Positions 15 through 21,618 of a stretch of 22,916 nucleotides of DNA are shown here, one piece after another. This DNA comes from a virus. The notes under the pieces were generated by a model. It saw only the letters and a program-made list of their open reading frames with translations, was not told where the DNA came from and made no database searches. The first letter of the stretch is position 1. Each line of letters opens with the position of its first letter. Location: positions 1 through 22,916 of IMG/VR virus record IMGVR_UViG_3300034374_008104. One strand, written 5' to 3'. The position numbers and the translations under genes are program-made.

Positions 15-110
15 TGCAATCCCAACGCCTCGATTCTTATCTATGTAAAACCAATCGAGCAAGAGCCAGTGCCAGATTTAGATTTACTAGGAGATGAGGA
101 TGATGAGTAA
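15..110 (+). CDS. Possible 3' end of an upstream gene with an acidic tail
   Basis: A short reading frame with no visible start codon runs into the TAA at 108-110 and encodes an acidic C-terminus, PVPDLDLLGDEDDE. Acidic tails like this occur on phage single-stranded-DNA-binding and other DNA-metabolism proteins, but nothing else here supports that role. The same frame has a TGA at 12-14, so it cannot continue to the left edge unless the sequence holds a frameshift. The alternative frame from the left edge ends with TAA at 46-48. Treat this as a possible gene remnant or the tail of a frameshifted upstream gene. Confidence 0.2.
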   Translation, partial: CNPNASILIYVKPIEQEPVPDLDLLGDEDDE

Positions 111-294
111 TATAGTAACGGATTTAGGATTTTGGATAATAGAGCTAATTGGGCTTTATTTGTGTATATTGGTTGCTTACGATCTTTTTTGGCCAAAGCC
201 AAAGAGAGATGAGCAAGAGTTGAATTATGATGATATTTATAGCTTGCGTGAAAGTGAGAGGCTTGAGAGATTTTTAGGAGGAAAAGATGATTAG
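100..294 (+). CDS. Small single-pass membrane protein, unknown function
   Basis: This 64-residue protein has one hydrophobic segment at about residues 8-29 (core FWIIELIGLYLCILVAYDLF), followed by a charged, mostly acidic tail with a YDDIYSLRESERLERF stretch that looks helical. I chose the start at 100 because AGGAG at 89-93 sits 6 nt upstream; ATG at 94 directly abuts the ribosome-binding site, and ATG at 103 is also possible. It overlaps the next gene by 8 nt, and that gene begins a coiled-coil protein, so the two are probably translated together. No family is recognised. A role at the inner membrane, in lysis timing or superinfection control, is only a guess from its size and topology. Confidence 0.6.
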   Translation: MMSNIVTDLGFWIIELIGLYLCILVAYDLFWPKPKRDEQELNYDDIYSLRESERLERFLGGKDD

Positions 295-487
295 ATGGAT
301 ATTTAAAAATAATAAAAAAGAAAAAGCTTTAGAGCAGATCGCACTTGAAGAAAAGATTTTAAAATTATCACATGAAAATATGATGCTAGAGCTTAAGCTT
401 AAAGCGCACCAGGCGCTGCAAAAAGAGCTAGGTGAGCAAATAAAAGCGGAAAGGCAGTTTAAGGCTGATTTGAAGTTAATTAAATGA
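287..487 (+). CDS. Small basic coiled-coil protein, unknown function
   Basis: This 66-residue, lysine- and glutamate-rich protein is almost entirely helical in character. Heptad-like spacing of Leu/Ile/Met runs from about residue 12 to 62 (KALEQIALEEKILKLSHENM), so a coiled coil is likely. The start is well supported by AGGAGG about 8 nt upstream, inside the end of the preceding gene. Its stop overlaps the next ATG as ATGA at 484-487, which implies coupling to the lipoprotein protease gene. No signal peptide or membrane segment is visible. I do not recognise a family; it may be a partner of the neighbouring membrane protein. Confidence 0.6.
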   Translation: MIRWIFKNNKKEKALEQIALEEKILKLSHENMMLELKLKAHQALQKELGEQIKAERQFKADLKLIK

Positions 488-488
488 A
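473..488 (+). repeat. 16-nt direct repeat over a start codon (copy 1 of 2)
   Basis: AAGTTAATTAAATGAA at 473-488 recurs exactly at 1619-1634. In both places the ATG inside it is a gene start (484 and 1630). Neither start has a clear Shine-Dalgarno sequence, so the repeat may be a shared AT-rich initiation region or the trace of a local duplication. With only two copies in an AT-rich genome, this is suggestive rather than proven. Confidence 0.4.
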
Positions 489-1368
489 GTATTTATTATT
501 ATGCTTTTTATTTTTAATTGGATGCGGTGGGAGTAGTTCAGGCCAGCCATGCAACGGCAAAGAATGTGCAGTAGGAGTGAGATTAGTTCATATTCAAAGT
601 GAAAAATCATTTAATTATCAAGATGCAGAAAAGATAGTGGCACTAGCAATAGAATTTCTTAACGCTAATACAACACTAGACTTGGTTTATAAAGGTGGTG
701 AATCAATAGCCGATCCTTTTCCTGGAACAGCAACGCTAGAAAATTGGTTAAAAGGAAGTGTTAGATTTAATAAACTTAGATTATTTTTATCAAGAAATAA
801 TATCGGTAGTAACTTCAAAAAAAGAGAAATTACTATAATCATTGACCAGCCATTAGTAGATGAAAACGGAGTTATATATACGGCAGGTAGAAGTAATATT
901 TGTAATTTATATAAAAGGGGATTAATTAGCTTAACTTATGCAACACCGTTCACTAATAACGATCCAAATGCAGGAAGTTATGGTAGAACAAAAGAAGAAA
1001 TGATAGTGCGAAGTGCGAACACAACGACACACGAAATAGCACATGGACTAGGAGCAAGGCATAAGGAATGTGAGGATTTACTTTGTATTATGTTACCCTA
1101 CTCAACTAGTTTAGTTCACGAAGGATTGTTGGGGTTGTTTTATGTACTTCCAGAAACTAATAGAGAAACAGAAGTTTGCACTAGGAGAGAAACAAGGAGA
1201 GAGATTTTGTTTTGCAGACGTAACACAATGACCAGAAAACAACTTAGAAATTGCAAGCGTAAACGCAAGATAAAAAATATTCGTTTAAGGGATGTAAAAT
1301 TTAAAGAGAATCAATTTAGAAGTATTGAACATGATAATCATATTGGTTGTAATTTAAGGAGGGCATAA
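484..1368 (+). CDS. Lipoprotein with metzincin-type zinc metalloprotease motif
   Basis: This 294-residue protein begins with a lipoprotein signal: basic start, hydrophobic core LLLCFLFL and a lipobox LIGC with Cys14 as the likely lipidated residue, followed by a Gly/Ser linker. Residues 183-193 read HEIAHGLGARH, the extended metzincin zinc motif HExxHxxGxxH (ligands His183, His187, His193; catalytic Glu184). A Met-turn candidate CIM follows at 201-203. These features are typical of metzincin proteases such as matrixins and archaemetzincins. The C-terminal quarter is very basic (Arg/Lys/Cys-rich) and matches no domain I know. The product is predicted to be exported and anchored to a membrane as an active protease. 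The start overlaps the preceding stop. A lipidated protease is unusual beside phage packaging genes; possible roles are surface modification, superinfection exclusion or release. The substrate is unknown. Confidence 0.75.
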   Translation: MKYLLLCFLFLIGCGGSSSGQPCNGKECAVGVRLVHIQSEKSFNYQDAEKIVALAIEFLNANTTLDLVYKGGESIADPFPGTATLENWLKGSVRFNKLRLFLSRNNIGSNFKKREITIIIDQPLVDENGVIYTAGRSNICNLYKRGLISLTYATPFTNNDPNAGSYGRTKEEMIVRSANTTTHEIAHGLGARHKECEDLLCIMLPYSTSLVHEGLLGLFYVLPETNRETEVCTRRETRREILFCRRNTMTRKQLRNCKRKRKIKNIRLRDVKFKENQFRSIEHDNHIGCNLRRA

Positions 1369-2019: not shown

Positions 2020-2406
2020 ATGAGCCAAGGAGAGGAGTATAAACCAACAAAAGAAGATGAGGCACTAATTAGAAAGTATGCTAATGAGGGGATGCCCGCA
2101 CAATTAATTTGCTATAAACTTGGCAAGTTTACATCCGTTAATACTCTTAAAAAATATTTTGCAAAAGTGTTAGATCAAGCAAAGCTGGTTCAAGAGTATG
2201 AAATGGGCAAAAATTTATATACTAGAGGAAAGGAAGGGGATAACACCGCTGCTATTTTTTGGCTTAAGACGCAATGTCCTGATAGATGGAGAGAAACCCA
2301 ACACATTGTGCAAGAGAATGCGCACAAGTTTATTAGTAATGAAGTTTTAAGTGATGAAATGTTTGAAAAAAAATATTTAATAGATGACGAAGGCAAAAAT
2401 AAATAG
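2020..2406 (+). CDS. terS: Putative terminase small subunit (DNA recognition)
   Basis: This 128-residue protein begins with a helix-turn-helix-like region at about residues 10-50 (DEALIRKYANEGMPAQLICY, then TSVNTLKKYF). A segment at about 64-95 with GDNTAAIFWLKTQCPDRWRE follows; the pattern GD-x-x-A-x-FWLKT-x-x-P-x-x-WRE is typical of small terminase or Terminase_2-like DNA-packaging proteins. The length fits the family. It lies immediately upstream of the large subunit and overlaps it by 23 nt, the classic order for a packaging operon. The gene is preceded by AAAAAAGGAA. In the family, the small subunit recognises the packaging site and regulates the large subunit's ATPase. Confidence 0.8.
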   Translation: MSQGEEYKPTKEDEALIRKYANEGMPAQLICYKLGKFTSVNTLKKYFAKVLDQAKLVQEYEMGKNLYTRGKEGDNTAAIFWLKTQCPDRWRETQHIVQENAHKFISNEVLSDEMFEKKYLIDDEGKNK

Positions 2407-4644
2407 AGATGAGATAGCTTGGAGTCCACAGCCGAAGCAGAAGATTTTGATTGATTGCCCTTATAGGGAGGTGCTTTTTGGAGGGGCGCGCGGCGGGGGA
2501 AAAGTAGTGGTATCTTAGGCAAATATGGGATTAAAGCGTTAAGATACCGATACACCAATGCTATTTTTTTTAGAAAAGAACTTCCACAAGCAGATGATTT
2601 AATTGAAGATGCTAGAGCTATTTATGAACCGCTTGGTGCTATATGGCGCGACCAGAAAAAAACATTTGAATTTCCAAATGGAAGCAGAGTTAGGTTTAGA
2701 CCACTTGAAAATGAAAGGGATGCAGAAAAGTATCAAGGACAATCTTTAACAGATTGTGCAGTAGAAGAAGCTGGAAACTATGCAGATCCAAAACCTATAG
2801 ATAAATTATTTGGTGCTTTACGTTCAAAGCATGGAGTACCTACACAGCTGATTATGACAGCTAACCCAGGTGGTGTTGGGCAATTGTGGATTAAAGAAAG
2901 ATTTATAGATCCAGCGCCTTTGGGTATGAAAACATTAACCCGCGAGCTTCCAAACGGACAAAAGCATAAGTATATCTACATACCTTCAAGGGTTCAAGAT
3001 AATCAGATACTACTACAGAATGACCCAAACTATATTAATAATTTATATTTAGTAGGTAGTAAGGAGCTTGTAAAAGCTTGGCTTGAAGGTTCGTGGGATG
3101 CAATAGAGGGCGCTTACTTTCCAGAGTTTAGTGTTGATAGACATGTAATAAAACCTTTTAAAATACCAGAAAGATGGAAGCGTTATATAGGCTATGATTG
3201 GGGATATTTTAGTGACAGTGCTTGCGTTTGGATAGCTATTAGCGATGGTAGAGATGATAATGGAGAGAAAGTTAAATATCCAAAGGGTAGTGTTATAGTT
3301 TATAGAGAGTGGATAGAAAGCAAGCTAAGTAATGAGGATCAAGCAAAAAAGATATTAGAATTAAGCGCAGGGGAGGAAATAGAAATAAGGGCAGCAGACC
3401 CTAGTATCTTTGCAAGTCAGGGCGGGCCAAGTATAGCTCAACAAATGCAAGATTGCGGGCTAACTTTTCATAAAGCAGATAATGCTAGGATTGCTGGTTG
3501 GTCTCAATTAAGGCGGCGCTTAAATCCAGGGGAGGGGCTAACACCTATGATTTATTTTTTTGATACTTGCACCACTGCTATAGAAGCAGTTGCAGCAGCG
3601 CCAGTTTGTAAAAAAAATGCTGAAGATTTAGATACAACATTCCCCAATGACCATGTCTGTTTTAGTGGTTCTACATTAGTAGATACGGCAAATGGACAAA
3701 TTCCTATAAAAGACCTAGTTAACAAACAATTTAAGGTAAATACTAGATGTGGTTATAAAAATGCCATAGGAGCAAAAACAGGAAGGAAAAGACTTTACAA
3801 GGTTGCGCTAAGTAATAAAAAGAGTTTTAATGCTACTATAGATCATCGGATACTTACAGGTATGGGATGGAAAGAAGTAGGTGAATTAAATATTGGAGAT
3901 AGGTTAATTGAAAGTAATAGAAATATCAGAAACAATACAAGAGTTCGATGGGCTAAGATATTACAAATGCGGTCATTATTTCAGCAGGCAAGTAAAAGGT
4001 GTCAAAGGTGGTGTCAGATTACACAGGAAAGTATACGAGCATCATTTTGGGAAAATTCCAGCAGGTATGCATATTCATCACAAGGATGGGAACAGGTTCA
4101 ACAATCAAATAGAGAATTTAGAAATGGTAAGTGCAAAAGCACATGTGGCCAAGCACATGACAAAAGCAAGAAGGCAACGAACAAGAGAGCATATTTTAGC
4201 TCAACAAGACAAAGCAACAGCTTGGCATCGTTCAGAGGAGGGGAGGGCTTGGCATCGGAAACATGCAAGGAAAGTAGCCGACAATATAAAATCTGTAAAA
4301 AAAGAATGTTACTGGTGCCAAAAAGAATATTTTACAAAAGCACCAAAGCTTTCAGTATTTTGTCATCAAAATTGCAAAATGCGAGCAAGGACACGAGGGT
4401 TATTAGCATCCGACCTAAAGGCATTGATGACGTATTTTGTTTATATGTACCAGAATACAATGAATTTACAATTGAAGGTGGATTAGTAGTTCATAATTGT
4501 GATGCATTGCGCTATAGCCTAATGGAAAATCTATACGTTCAAACAGACTACCACAAACCAGAAGAATATGCTACAAAAGGAAGTATAAACATTAGTAATT
4601 TAGTTCAAAAACACAAAGCGAAAAACAGAAAGTCTAAAATATAA
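2384..4644 (+). CDS. terL: Terminase large subunit, frameshifted and intein-interrupted
   Basis: The packaging motor ATPase/nuclease begins at ATG 2384 (after an in-frame TAG) with MTKAKINRDEIAWSPQPKQK and reaches Walker A GGARGGGK at residues 33-40. The frame-0 reading then stops at TAG 2516-2518 after 44 residues. A -1 shift after AAA 2501-2503 restores SSGILGKYG and everything downstream. Further motifs are Walker B CAVEEAG (Glu128/129), coupling motif TANPGG, nuclease YDWG (Asp272), ADPSIF, and the final nuclease motif DHV/CDALRY. The last is split by a 280-residue intein (precursor residues 426-705). The mature extein is about 473 residues, normal for TerL. The gene overlaps terS by 23 nt and the portal gene by 1 nt. 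The ATG at 2854 is an internal methionine before TANPGG and leaves out the ATPase core. The break is a programmed -1 frameshift or a missing A in the sequence. Confidence 0.9.
2480..2548 (+). promoter_or_regulatory. Candidate programmed -1 ribosomal frameshift signal in terL
   Basis: Three elements stand in the arrangement known from bacterial dnaX-type -1 frameshifting. (1) A slippery heptamer G GGA AAA at 2497-2503, in the correct phase (zero-frame codons GGA AAA); it differs only in its last base from the lambda tail-gene heptamer GGGAAAG. (2) An SD-like GGAGGGG at 2480-2486, ending 10 nt before the heptamer. (3) A perfect 9-bp stem, GGTATCTTA 2509-2517 with TAAGATACC 2540-2548 and a 22-nt loop, starting after a 5-nt spacer. 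The zero-frame stop at 2516-2518 overlaps the stem. Slipping back one base joins Walker A Lys to SSG, as expected for the family. A deletion in the G5A4 homopolymer is the alternative. Confidence 0.6.
3658..4497 (+). other. Intein in the TerL nuclease domain
   Basis: In the TerL frame, residue Cys1 (TGT 3658-3660) opens a typical block A, CFSGSTLVDTANG. Block B is NATIDHRILTGMGW with the conserved Thr-x-x-His. The C-terminal blocks F and G are DDVFCLYVPEYNEFTIEGG and VVHN followed by Cys+1 (4498-4500). Removing the 280 residues joins PNDHV to CDALRY and rebuilds the terminase nuclease motif, so the boundaries are well determined. Between blocks B and F, this frame encodes about 165 residues rich in Ser, Gln, Arg and Lys with no recognisable domain. 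That stretch is the out-of-frame shadow of the HNH gene. Phage terminases are known intein hosts. Splicing needs the Cys1, the block B His, the terminal Asn and the Cys+1, and all are present. Confidence 0.92.
3908..4486 (+). CDS. HNH homing endonuclease nested out of frame in the intein
   Basis: A complete 192-residue HNH endonuclease is encoded in the +1 frame relative to TerL and its intein. The core at about residues 38-83 has LHRKVYEHHFGKIPAG, HIHHKDGNRFNN and IENLEMVSAKAH. A basic middle follows, then a zinc-finger-like Cys pair set (Cys134, Cys137, Cys152, Cys156). The N-terminal EFDGLRYYKCGHYFSRQ resembles the start of free-standing phage HNH enzymes. It starts at TTG 3908, directly after an in-frame TAA (3905-3907), with GGAG at 3895-3898 placed 9 nt upstream, so independent initiation is plausible. 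The stop at 4484-4486 lies inside intein block F/G coding, so its last 25 or so residues are overprinted on the conserved intein C-terminus. It probably cuts intein-free terL alleles to promote homing. Confidence 0.88.
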   Translation: MKVIEISETIQEFDGLRYYKCGHYFSRQVKGVKGGVRLHRKVYEHHFGKIPAGMHIHHKDGNRFNNQIENLEMVSAKAHVAKHMTKARRQRTREHILAQQDKATAWHRSEEGRAWHRKHARKVADNIKSVKKECYWCQKEYFTKAPKLSVFCHQNCKMRARTRGLLASDLKALMTYFVYMYQNTMNLQLKVD

Positions 4645-11275: not shown

Positions 11276-11302
11276 TAATTTTTATTTATGGAGATAAAAA
11301 AA

Positions 11303-12001
11303 ATGAAATTAAGAAATGTTTTGTTAATACTTTTAACGGTATTAATTATCGTAAAAATTGCAAGTGCGGATCAAGAATCTGATTTAATTGGGTTAGGGAT
11401 GCCAGCACCACTTGCTACTAAAGTTGCTAATCCAGAGGATTTAGATGTTACTAATAACGTTACCATTGGTGGTACTTTGGGAGTAACAGGGGTTAGCACA
11501 TTCACAGGTGAAGCAGATTTTAATGGTGGGATTGATGGAGGCTTTACAGATGGATCTATTTTGTTTTCTGATTCTAATGGAGAGATTAGTGAAGATGTTG
11601 CAGGGTTATCATTTAATAGCTCATCTAATGTTCTAACAGCAACAGGTGGATTGCGATTGAGCGCAGCAGGTAGTTTTTTATATGCTAATGTTGCTACAGT
11701 TGCACCTGCTGGAAGCAATCAAGGGGACGCTACTCCATTAGTTCAATCGTTTAATTATTCAGGAACATCGGATGGAACTAAAGGTTTTATTTTACCAACA
11801 CCAACAGCAAATTTTCTTCCAGTAATATTTGTTAATGTTGCAAGTGCAGGCACCACAGAGTTATATCCACATAGTGGTGGTGCGATTAACGACCAAGCAA
11901 CAAATGCAGGTGTGACAATGTCAGGTGGTAGTGGAACACTTTGTTATCCAACAGACACCACTAACTGGAATTGTTTCGAGTTTGCAGAAACTACACTTTA
12001 A
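11303..12001 (+). CDS. Fibre-like beta-rich protein with an N-terminal signal peptide
   Basis: The 232-residue protein begins with MKLRNVLLILLTVLIIVKIA, a basic start and hydrophobic core ending in ASA at 20-22, which looks like a Sec signal peptide or membrane anchor. The mature part carries DVTNNVTIGGTLGVTGVSTF, GSILFSDSNGEISED and LSFNSSSNVLTATGGLRLS, short beta repeats typical of phage tail fibres and baseplate appendages. Two C-terminal cysteines (CYPTDTTNWNC) could form a disulfide outside the cytoplasm. ATG 11303 is chosen over ATG 11288 because TGGAGA lies 8-9 nt upstream of 11303. A signal sequence on a presumed virion component is unexpected, so the product may instead be exported by the host. 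Confidence 0.6.
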   Translation: MKLRNVLLILLTVLIIVKIASADQESDLIGLGMPAPLATKVANPEDLDVTNNVTIGGTLGVTGVSTFTGEADFNGGIDGGFTDGSILFSDSNGEISEDVAGLSFNSSSNVLTATGGLRLSAAGSFLYANVATVAPAGSNQGDATPLVQSFNYSGTSDGTKGFILPTPTANFLPVIFVNVASAGTTELYPHSGGAINDQATNAGVTMSGGSGTLCYPTDTTNWNCFEFAETTL

Positions 12002-12025: not shown

Positions 12026-12859
12026 ATGAAAAAACTACTAACACCAATAATAATTTTAGGCTTTGCTTTTATCGCAAATGCAGAGCCTATTTACAGTCCA
12101 GACGCAAGCCAGCAAAGCGGTACTTTTGCAATTGATGCTTGTCTAGGGCAAGTTACTGGTGTTAGTTGCTTAAATAAGTTTGGAGAGAATCCAGATGTTG
12201 ATACAGGCGGAGCGGAAAGTGTTTGGGATGGCGGCGGCTTATATCCTTGGGCTTCGCTTGCTTCAGCACAAGCATTAGAAATTGTTAGCGCAAGTGCAAA
12301 TGATGATTCAGCAGGAACAGGAGCTAGAACGGTAGAAGTTCAAGGTTTAGATGCAAATTATGATTTGCAAACCGAAACAGTAACTTTAGACGGTACTACT
12401 GAAGTAGATTTAACAAATACTTTTTTGCGTGTTTTTAGAATGAAAGTTTTAACTGCTGGAAGCGGTGGTGTAAATGCAGGAATTATCACACTAAGATTAG
12501 ATGGTGCGGGGGCTACAATTGCAAATATTCTAGCAGGAGAAAACCAAACGCTCATGGCAATTTATACAGTGCCACGTTATCATAAACTCGTAGTACATAA
12601 GTATTTAGTTGATATTAATGGTGCAGCTGGAAGTGATGTAGAATTTAAAGTTTATGTTAGAGAAGAAGATTCTGTATTTCAATTGCGGCGATTACTAGGA
12701 TTAAAGGGCGGTGCTACATCTATTTTTATTAGCAAATTACAAATACCTGAAGTGTATCCAGCAAAAACAGATATTGATATTAGAACATTGACAGATGCTA
12801 ATAATACTAATGTAGCGGCAGCATTTGATGGTTTTTTAATTAGAACAGAAGAGGGATAA
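12026..12859 (+). CDS. Secreted-type beta-rich structural protein of the marine podophage family
   Basis: The 277-residue protein has a clear Sec signal peptide, MKKLLTPIIILGFAFIANA, with cleavage likely after Ala19, and a nearby Cys pair (CLGQVTGVSC). The rest matches a family I remember from podophages of aquatic bacteria: NKFGENPDVDTGGAESVWDG, EIVSASANDDSAGTGARTVE, GLDANYDLQTETVTLDGTTE, TNTFLRVFRMKV, NQTLMAIYTVPRYHK. Its precise role is unknown; it is commonly annotated as a virion or hypothetical protein. It ends immediately before the next ATG and begins after an AT-rich 24-nt gap with no clear ribosome-binding site. The predicted export together with the Cys pair suggests folding in the periplasm. 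Confidence 0.62.
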   Translation: MKKLLTPIIILGFAFIANAEPIYSPDASQQSGTFAIDACLGQVTGVSCLNKFGENPDVDTGGAESVWDGGGLYPWASLASAQALEIVSASANDDSAGTGARTVEVQGLDANYDLQTETVTLDGTTEVDLTNTFLRVFRMKVLTAGSGGVNAGIITLRLDGAGATIANILAGENQTLMAIYTVPRYHKLVVHKYLVDINGAAGSDVEFKVYVREEDSVFQLRRLLGLKGGATSIFISKLQIPEVYPAKTDIDIRTLTDANNTNVAAAFDGFLIRTEEG

Positions 12860-20467: not shown

Positions 20468-21085
20468 ATGCCGTGGGATGGAGCAGGAAATTTTACAAGA
20501 ACAAACGGAGTAAACACAGGCGACGACCTGTGGGAGCAGGATAAAAATGCAGCCGTTAAAATTGTCACATCAAGACATGATGATCATGATACTGATTTAA
20601 AAGATGGTATTGATAGTTGCTTAACAAAAAATGGTGAGAATAGTCCAACTGCTAATTTACCAATGGGAGGCTATAAGCATACAGGGGCAGCTAGTGGAAC
20701 AGCTAACGGGCAATATTTAATCTTTGACCAGTTTGCATGGACAGCATGGAATCCAACATTAACACCTGGTGGAAGCATGACTTATACAAGCACCACTGTT
20801 AATCATGCCGAGTATTGTAATGTAAATGATATTGTATTTTTTAGATTAGATTTTACAGGAACAGTAGGTGGTACTCCAAATAATTCTATGAATTTTACTT
20901 TACCAGTCACAGCTACTACAGATGGTGTAGCACTAACAGTAAATATTACAGACAATGGTTCTATTGTAGCAGGTTCAGGAACTTATGCAGCTGTTGGATC
21001 TAGTGATTTATATAGATACGATTCAGCAGTGTATACAGCAGGAACGGTTTCTTTTAGAGTACATGGATTTTATCAAAGTGCATAG
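20468..21085 (+). CDS. Tail fibre or appendage protein
   Basis: The 205-residue protein begins MPWDGAGNFTRTNGVNTGDD, then EQDKNAAVKIVTSRHDDHDT with DLKDGIDSCLTKNGENSPTA and NLPMGGYKHTGAASGT. This N-terminal pattern (T-S-R-H-D-x-H-D, then ANLPMGG-x-K-x-T-G) is very common in phage tail-fibre and tailspike N-termini that attach to the virion. The C-terminal part is a beta-rich Thr/Gly/Val domain of about 110 residues and may be the receptor-binding tip. AGGAG upstream favours ATG 20468 over the TTG at 20462. The protein is short for a fibre, so other fibre genes may lie elsewhere. No reverse transcriptase or variable/template repeat pair is visible nearby. Confidence 0.72.
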   Translation: MPWDGAGNFTRTNGVNTGDDLWEQDKNAAVKIVTSRHDDHDTDLKDGIDSCLTKNGENSPTANLPMGGYKHTGAASGTANGQYLIFDQFAWTAWNPTLTPGGSMTYTSTTVNHAEYCNVNDIVFFRLDFTGTVGGTPNNSMNFTLPVTATTDGVALTVNITDNGSIVAGSGTYAAVGSSDLYRYDSAVYTAGTVSFRVHGFYQSA

Positions 21086-21087
21086 TC

Positions 21088-21618
21088 ATGCAATCAGTAA
21101 GCTTTATACCACAAATAAAAAAGCTAGAAGAAAAGCTAACTAAAGAAAAATTTAAAGTTTATGAAGGTGGGTTAAGCAAGCTAAAATTATTAGCAGAAAA
21201 ATTAGCAAAAAAAGAAGATGATTTAAAAATATTAAATCAAGCTTATACAGATTTATTTAATTACTCAAGTATTGGTATTTGTGAGGTTGGCTTAGACGGT
21301 AAGTTTTTATCTGTTAATGATGCGTGGTGCAAAATGTGCAAGAGGTCACGTTTTGAGTTATTAAAATTAACTTGGATGGAAATAACAAAACCTGAATTTA
21401 TTAAAAAAGATACAGGGCAAGTTAAAAAATTAATATCAAAAGAAATTAAAACTTATACTATGTATAAAGAATATTTTGATAAAGAAAATAATGCTATCCC
21501 GATGATTTTAACCGTATCATGTGTTTTTGATAGCAACGGAAAAGTTAAAAATTTTATAAGTCAAGGCATTGATATAGAAGGAACTAAAAAGCTTTTAGAA
21601 GATTTAAAAAATGGATGA
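21088..21618 (+). CDS. Stand-alone PAS-domain protein with N-terminal coiled coil
   Basis: This 176-residue protein has an N-terminal Lys/Leu-rich coiled coil (about residues 8-48). A PAS/PAC domain follows at about 52-170: YTDLFNYSSIGICEVGLDGK, FLSVNDAWCKMCKRSRFELL, TWMEITKPEF, then YKEYFDKENNAIPMILTVSC and FDSNGKVKNFISQGIDIEG. The order PAS core, linking helix, and a PAC-like strand pair is clear. PAS domains bind small ligands or cofactors and mediate signalling or dimerisation; here there is no kinase, cyclase, phosphodiesterase or HTH output domain. It could be a captured host fragment that interferes with sensor proteins. It follows the fibre gene by 2 nt and overlaps the holin-like gene by 8 nt. 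Confidence 0.85.
   Translation: MQSVSFIPQIKKLEEKLTKEKFKVYEGGLSKLKLLAEKLAKKEDDLKILNQAYTDLFNYSSIGICEVGLDGKFLSVNDAWCKMCKRSRFELLKLTWMEITKPEFIKKDTGQVKKLISKEIKTYTMYKEYFDKENNAIPMILTVSCVFDSNGKVKNFISQGIDIEGTKKLLEDLKNG

What the first reader, a model, noticed from the sequence alone, without database searches (positions are those of the whole stretch)
484..1368. Phage-encoded lipoprotein with a complete metzincin zinc site
A lipobox protein with HEIAHGLGARH and a CIM Met-turn candidate is predicted to be an active, membrane-tethered protease. Few phages are known to encode exported metzincins next to packaging genes. The Arg/Lys/Cys-rich C-terminus has no recognised domain. It may alter surface proteins of the infected cell, exclude other phages, or serve as a lysogenic-conversion factor.
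Basis: partly seen in the sequence, partly recalled or inferred. Interest (0 to 1): 0.68.

Follow-up and report, generated by a model that had tools for sequence, protein, structure and literature searches.

The report
Lipid-anchored metalloprotease carried by a phage
A short-tailed bacterial virus known only from metagenomes carries a gene for a protein-cutting zinc enzyme that, by its sequence, the infected bacterium would export and anchor in its own envelope, probably to cut a host surface protein and so change which viruses can infect the cell.

Summary
ORF 484-1368 (+, 294 aa) encodes a type-II signal peptide with lipobox LIGC (Cys14), HEIAHGLGARH (183-193) and CIM (201-203). It is the only lipobox gene in the window. 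Three other IMG/VR records carry it: L003/L006 and L004 (identical DNA) and L010 (67% protein identity). Zinc ligands, catalytic Glu, Met203 and all ten cysteines are invariant between window and L010, under purifying selection (dN/dS about 0.31). The L010 copy passes two Pfam reprolysin-like cut-offs and aligns with adamalysin-type proteases (E 0.0016). It is very likely an exported, lipid-anchored, reprolysin-like metzincin. The fold is unconfirmed (AlphaFold pLDDT 32-35).

New here: two otherwise nearly unrelated phages share the metzincin (67%) and the tail-fibre tip (83%), while their terminases are 39% alike. The fibre tip was found nowhere else in IMG/VR. In L010 the gene lies in a recombination operon, away from lysis genes. 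Best guess: an envelope protease that alters a host surface protein, probably the phage receptor (superinfection exclusion). No substrate is shown. Phage metzincins as such are not new: Listeria prophages have one, and eleven other IMG/VR contigs carry other types.

The parts
484..1368 (+). Gene of the exported metzincin lipoprotein (294 aa)
   Evidence: ORF list; identical DNA in L003 and L004, 67% identical protein in L010
484..525 (+). Type-II signal peptide, residues 1-13, and lipidated Cys14 (lipobox LIGC)
   Evidence: Sequence; Cys plus GGSSS conserved in L010
526..549 (+). Gly/Ser-rich tether, residues 15-22 (GGSSSGQP)
   Evidence: Sequence
568..1140 (+). Catalytic domain, about residues 29-219; order of predicted elements (strand 33-39, helix 45-58, strand 63-70, helix 92-104, strand 114-121, active-site helix 182-188) is that of a metzincin
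   Evidence: Pfam Reprolysin_4/_3 on the relative; PDB sequence matches; low-confidence secondary structure
1030..1062 (+). Zinc site HEIAHGLGARH (His183, Glu184, His187, Gly190, His193)
1069..1092 (+). Cys196-Cys201 pair and Met-turn candidate CIM (Met203)
   Evidence: Both cysteines align with the cysteine pair that precedes the Met-turn of adamalysin-type chains
1141..1365 (+). Basic, cysteine-containing C-terminal extension, residues 220-294, no known domain
   Evidence: pI 11.1, 4 Cys invariant in L010; no family match
94..294 (+). Small single-span membrane protein two genes upstream; possible relative of the gene directly after the metzincin in L010
   Evidence: 27% over 37 residues, E 5e-4, mostly the membrane span: weak
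20810..21085 (+). Tip of the putative tail fibre (residues 117-207), shared at 83-84% with L010, the only other phage type carrying the metzincin
   Evidence: the N-terminal part matches a collagen-like tail protein of MW202489

Best explanation
The phage makes a zinc protease with a reprolysin-like metzincin catalytic domain. The host's Sec and lipoprotein machinery exports it and fixes it by a lipid on Cys14, in a Gram-negative host most likely on the periplasmic face of the outer membrane (Gly at +2). There, folded by disulfides and helped by a basic tail that may hold it near anionic envelope polymers, it cuts one or a few host envelope proteins. The most likely use is to destroy or alter the surface receptor that the phage's own fibre tip recognises, so that the infected cell and its debris no longer bind phage (superinfection exclusion). 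Supported by sequence: export signal, zinc site, family resemblance, purifying selection, sharing of enzyme and fibre tip. Inferred: activity, location, substrate, purpose.
For: Signal peptide plus lipobox, and ten of ten Cys invariant at 67% identity, which suits an oxidising compartment. Zinc ligands, Glu184 and Met203 conserved; dN 0.28, dS 0.92. Relative over cut-off for Reprolysin_4 and Reprolysin_3; PDB matches to adamalysin-type proteases, E 0.0016, with the Cys pair before the Met-turn aligned. The window phage and L010 share only this protein (67%), the fibre tip (83%) and the terminase (39%), plus a doubtful match between small membrane proteins; the fibre tip occurs in no other IMG/VR record that the scan could find. 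In L010 the gene lies in the operon of Rad52 and DUF1064 genes, on the strand opposite to the endolysin-like gene, so it is probably made before lysis. Phage lipoproteins that inactivate the receptor are an established device (T5 Llp, PMC9586334).
Against: No substrate, host or expression timing is known. The fold was not confirmed (pLDDT 32 and 35). Sharing of enzyme and fibre tip rests on two phage types and could merely mean a shared host. Known receptor-blocking lipoproteins (Llp, Cor) act by binding, not cutting. L010's lipobox has Trp at -2, which is unusual.
Confidence: 0.4

Rival explanations
1. Exported metzincin that weakens the envelope to help lysis and release, like the Listeria Mtz/Tim pair: it cleaves an envelope protein and the cell becomes easier to lyse.
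For: A phage-derived exported metzincin with exactly this effect is documented (PMC8235301).
Against: In Listeria prophages the pair follows holin and lysin genes; here the gene is far from the putative lysis region, and in L010 it is on the other strand from the endolysin-like gene, in a recombination operon. No TIMP-like lipoprotein partner lies next to it; the only lipobox gene of the window is the metzincin itself.
Confidence: 0.2
2. Accessory gene that serves the host between infections (lysogenic conversion): a surface protease for nutrition, predation, or attack on competitors or eukaryotes.
For: Exported metzincins are common secreted enzymes of bacteria (own knowledge); cro/YdaS-like regulators occur near it in L004 and L010.
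Against: No integrase seen in the window or L010. The gene is embedded by overlapping start and stop codons in a phage operon, with promoter-like sites no more than in shuffles. No copy found in 84,980 bacterial and archaeal genomes by two pattern scans, where a common prophage gene might have shown.
Confidence: 0.15
3. Processing enzyme for the phage's own exported proteins, such as the two gene products in the tail region with Sec-like signal peptides (11288-12001, 12026-12859).
For: Two such genes exist in the window.
Against: L010 covers too little of the structural region to test for them; a lipid-anchored enzyme outside the cytoplasm could not reach intracellular assembly intermediates.
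Confidence: 0.07
4. Not a protease: a catalytically dead or non-metzincin zinc protein with a chance motif.
For: Fold prediction failed; the window copy alone does not reach any Pfam cut-off.
Against: All catalytic residues present and conserved; the relative passes two Pfam cut-offs; purifying selection, and 5 in 200,000 shuffles give the motif.
Confidence: 0.1

Closest known systems
Adamalysin/reprolysin-like metzincins (MEROPS M12B; Pfam Reprolysin_3, Reprolysin_4)
   Same: Best sequence match beyond the motif (about 65-90 residues); similar length from domain start to zinc site; cysteine pair directly before the Met-turn CIM
   Different: Third zinc His followed by Lys, not the family's Asp; no prodomain-sized stretch before the catalytic domain; lipid anchor; basic Cys-rich tail; only remote similarity
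Listeria prophage Mtz (metzincin) with Tim lipoprotein (PMC8235301)
   Same: Phage-derived, exported metzincin acting at the envelope
   Different: Mtz is a secreted Sec/SPI protein paired with a separate lipoprotein near lysis genes; here the enzyme is itself the lipoprotein, without such a partner; sequence kinship with Mtz was not tested
Phage superinfection-exclusion lipoproteins Llp (T5) and Cor (T1 and relatives) (PMC9586334)
   Same: Phage-encoded lipoprotein placed in the host envelope, made before lysis (here inferred)
   Different: Those are small and not enzymes, and block the receptor by binding
Archaemetzincin-like (M54) and matrixin-like (M10) proteins of other IMG/VR contigs (L012-L022)
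   Same: Virus-borne metzincins, several with signal-peptide-like N-termini
   Different: Other families; similarity of the M54-like group to the present protein is confined to 23 columns of the zinc site

Membership tests
Metzincin clan | Zinc site HExxHxxGxxH/D | tested here: met
   HEIAHGLGARH at 183-193, conserved in L010
Metzincin clan | Met-turn after the zinc site | tested here: inconclusive
   Met203 in CIM, 10 residues after His193, conserved and aligned with the Met-turn of adamalysin-type chains; the turn itself needs a structure
Metzincin clan | Metzincin fold | tested here: inconclusive
   AlphaFold2 pLDDT 32.3 and 34.8, no Foldseek match below E 0.001; only the order of elements agrees
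Reprolysin-like, Pfam Reprolysin_4 / Reprolysin_3 | Score over Pfam gathering cut-off | tested here: inconclusive
   L010 relative: 23.3 (cut-off 22) and 23.6 (22.4); window copy below cut-off (Reprolysin_3 15.1 against 22.4, Reprolysin_5 16 against 27)
Classical adamalysins M12B | Asp directly after the third zinc His (HExxHxxGxxHD) | tested here: not met
   Lys194 in the window, Lys in L010. It is therefore not filed as a classical M12B member
Archaemetzincin M54 | Score over Pfam/NCBIfam cut-off for M54 / archaemetzincin | tested here: not met
   L010 relative 12.9 bits against 24.4, 23.7 against 145
Bacterial lipoprotein | Type-II signal peptide with lipobox and Cys | tested here: met
   MKYLLLCFLFLIGC; L010 has a less regular box IWSC
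Bacterial lipoprotein | Lipidation and membrane location | not testable with these tools
   Needs an experiment
Phage superinfection-exclusion lipoprotein | Blocks adsorption or entry of the same phage type | not testable with these tools
   Needs an experiment; gene position and shared fibre tip are only indirect
Mtz/Tim pair | Adjacent gene for a TIMP-like lipoprotein, next to holin-lysin | tested here: not met
   No second lipobox gene in the window; lysis genes not adjacent

The most novel reading that the evidence does not exclude
A membrane-tethered phage protease that disables the host receptor by cutting it: proteolytic superinfection exclusion, with enzyme and fibre tip travelling together between otherwise unrelated phages as a matched pair.
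Probability: 0.22. Interest if true: 0.75.

Novelty: new variant of a known kind. Interest (0 to 1): 0.45.

Why it matters
Phages are known to block their receptors with small binding lipoproteins. A phage enzyme anchored in the host envelope that cuts proteins there would be a different route, and the pairing with one fibre tip makes it testable: the fibre tip points to the receptor, and the receptor would be the first substrate to try. Even without that, it adds an orphan lipid-anchored metzincin family of viruses with an unexplained basic Cys-rich tail.

Tried and rejected
Structure prediction of the whole protein and of the trimmed domain with the two available sequences: too shallow (pLDDT 32.3, 34.8), and Foldseek on it gave nothing meaningful. 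More relatives: two protein scans and loose DNA patterns in IMG/VR gave the same three records. Genome scans gave no relative; the one pattern hit, L023 in a Dehalococcoidia MAG, is another metzincin-like protein. INPHARED and PLSDB tblastn: none. PHROGs and PADLOC: no model. Rejected: archaemetzincin (below cut-off), Mtz/Tim-like pair (no partner), free accessory gene with its own promoter (overlaps both neighbours; promoter-like sites no more than in shuffles).

Full report
What is there. The ORF at 484-1368 on the + strand is real: 294 codons, ATG start, no internal stop. Its start overlaps the stop of the gene before it and its stop overlaps the start of the gene after it, so it is read as part of an operon. 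The N-terminus MKYLLLCFLFLIGC-GGSSS is a typical type-II signal peptide with lipobox. Of 23 gene-like ORFs checked in the window it alone has one. Residues 183-193 read HEIAHGLGARH and 201-203 CIM. In 200,000 shuffles of the protein the pattern HExxHxxGxxH appeared 5 times.

Relatives. The window is an IMG/VR virus record of 22,916 bases. IMG/VR holds only three other records with the gene that could be found: L003/L006 and L004, with identical DNA over the gene and about 98-99% over the flanks, and L010 (same contig as L005 and L007), 67% identical in protein. None was found in isolated phages, plasmids or 84,980 genomes, though pattern scans only find close kin. Between window and L010 the zinc ligands, Glu184, Gly190, Met203 and all ten cysteines are invariant. 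dN is 0.28 and dS 0.92 overall, so the protein is under purifying selection; the 28-residue N-terminal stretch that includes the signal peptide is the relaxed part (0.42 against 0.41).

Family. The window copy alone scores under every cut-off. The L010 copy passes Reprolysin_4 (23.3 bits, cut-off 22, matched over residues 116-204) and Reprolysin_3 (23.6, cut-off 22.4). phmmer with it finds adamalysin-type solved structures, E 0.0016 at best, aligned over residues 146-210, with the two cysteines before the Met-turn aligned to each other; the two-sequence profile gives 0.009. The residue after the third His is Lys, whereas classical adamalysins have Asp (own knowledge of the family), so I call it reprolysin-like, not a member of M12B. 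Profile similarity to phage archaemetzincin-like proteins is confined to 23 columns of the zinc site.

Structure. AlphaFold2 with the two available sequences gave pLDDT 32.3 (whole protein) and 34.8 (trimmed domain of L010), and no meaningful Foldseek match. The order of predicted elements, strand-helix-strand-helix-strand and then the active-site helix, is that of a metzincin, but this is weak evidence. The fold is neither shown nor refuted.

Surroundings. The window phage has capsid and portal proteins related to the Mx8 group of short-tailed phages (major capsid 27-33% identity over 93-99% of the length). Its host is unknown; several genes have clear ribosome-binding sites and the G+C content is 37%. 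L010 encodes on + an operon with Rad52, the metzincin and a DUF1064 protein, and on - an endolysin-like gene (by its look, a peptidase M15-type protein) and the fibre end. Comparison of the two phages' ORFs shows only four real matches: metzincin 67%, fibre tip 83% over 94 residues, terminase 39%, and a doubtful match between small membrane proteins near the metzincin; the remaining rows are antisense shadows. The fibre tip was found in no other IMG/VR record, and the N-terminal part of the fibre resembles a tail protein of MW202489, which fits a fixed tail anchor and an exchangeable tip. So two phages with little else in common carry the same rare envelope enzyme and the same rare fibre tip. 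A shared host explains this too, but a link between enzyme and receptor is the more specific reading. The limit: both contigs are incomplete, and only two phage types are known.

Mechanism. I commit to an exported, lipid-anchored protease that cuts a host envelope protein during infection (about 0.7 for this general statement, inference from the family and the export signal), most likely the phage receptor or a protein near it (0.4 for the full statement). Known comparators: T5 Llp, a phage lipoprotein that blocks the receptor by binding (PMC9586334), and the Listeria Mtz/Tim pair, in which a phage-derived secreted metzincin cleaves a lipoprotein and sensitises cells to lysis (PMC8235301). The lysis reading is less likely here because of gene position and the missing partner.

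Novelty. Virus-borne exported metzincins as such are not new: besides Listeria, one pattern scan found eleven other contigs with M54- or M10-like proteins, several with signal-peptide-like N-termini. New, as far as the literature searches here show, are the lipid anchor on the enzyme itself, the orphan family with a basic Cys-rich tail, and the pairing with a fibre tip. I rate it a new variant of a known kind.

Noticed in passing
window 2390-2853: The terminase large subunit is split at its Walker A motif: FGGARGGGK in one frame continues as SSGILGKYG in the -1 frame, exactly at a slippery heptamer G GGA AAA (2497-2503). The same DNA is in L003 and L004 from other samples, so it is unlikely to be a sequencing error; it may be programmed -1 frameshifting. 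L010's terminase is intact there.
   Followed up: partly
window about 3655-4500, HNH ORF 3908-4486: An intein lies in the terminase large subunit (Pfam Intein_splicing), and an HNH_3 endonuclease (3e-16) is encoded inside it in a different reading frame, both frames open.
   Followed up: partly
L003 and L004: Natural pair of filled and empty intein site: L003 has the intein, L004 has an uninterrupted terminase (NDHVLDSVRYCLMEN); DNA just downstream of the site also differs, as co-conversion would leave it.
   Followed up: partly
window 11288-12001 and 12026-12859: Two adjacent genes within the tail/structural region have Sec-like signal peptides, odd for virion proteins.
   Followed up: no
window 21088-21618: A PAS-domain protein (PAS_9, 1.4e-6) is encoded near the putative lysis end of the phage.
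   Followed up: no
L012-L022: Other IMG/VR contigs encode M54-like (several with signal peptides, one with a lipobox-like TSC) and M10-like metzincins, suggesting that virus-borne metzincins are commoner than the literature says.
   Followed up: partly
L010 7838-8155: Second possible lipoprotein (lipobox-like VSC) in the same operon as the L010 metzincin, no family match; a candidate partner.
   Followed up: no
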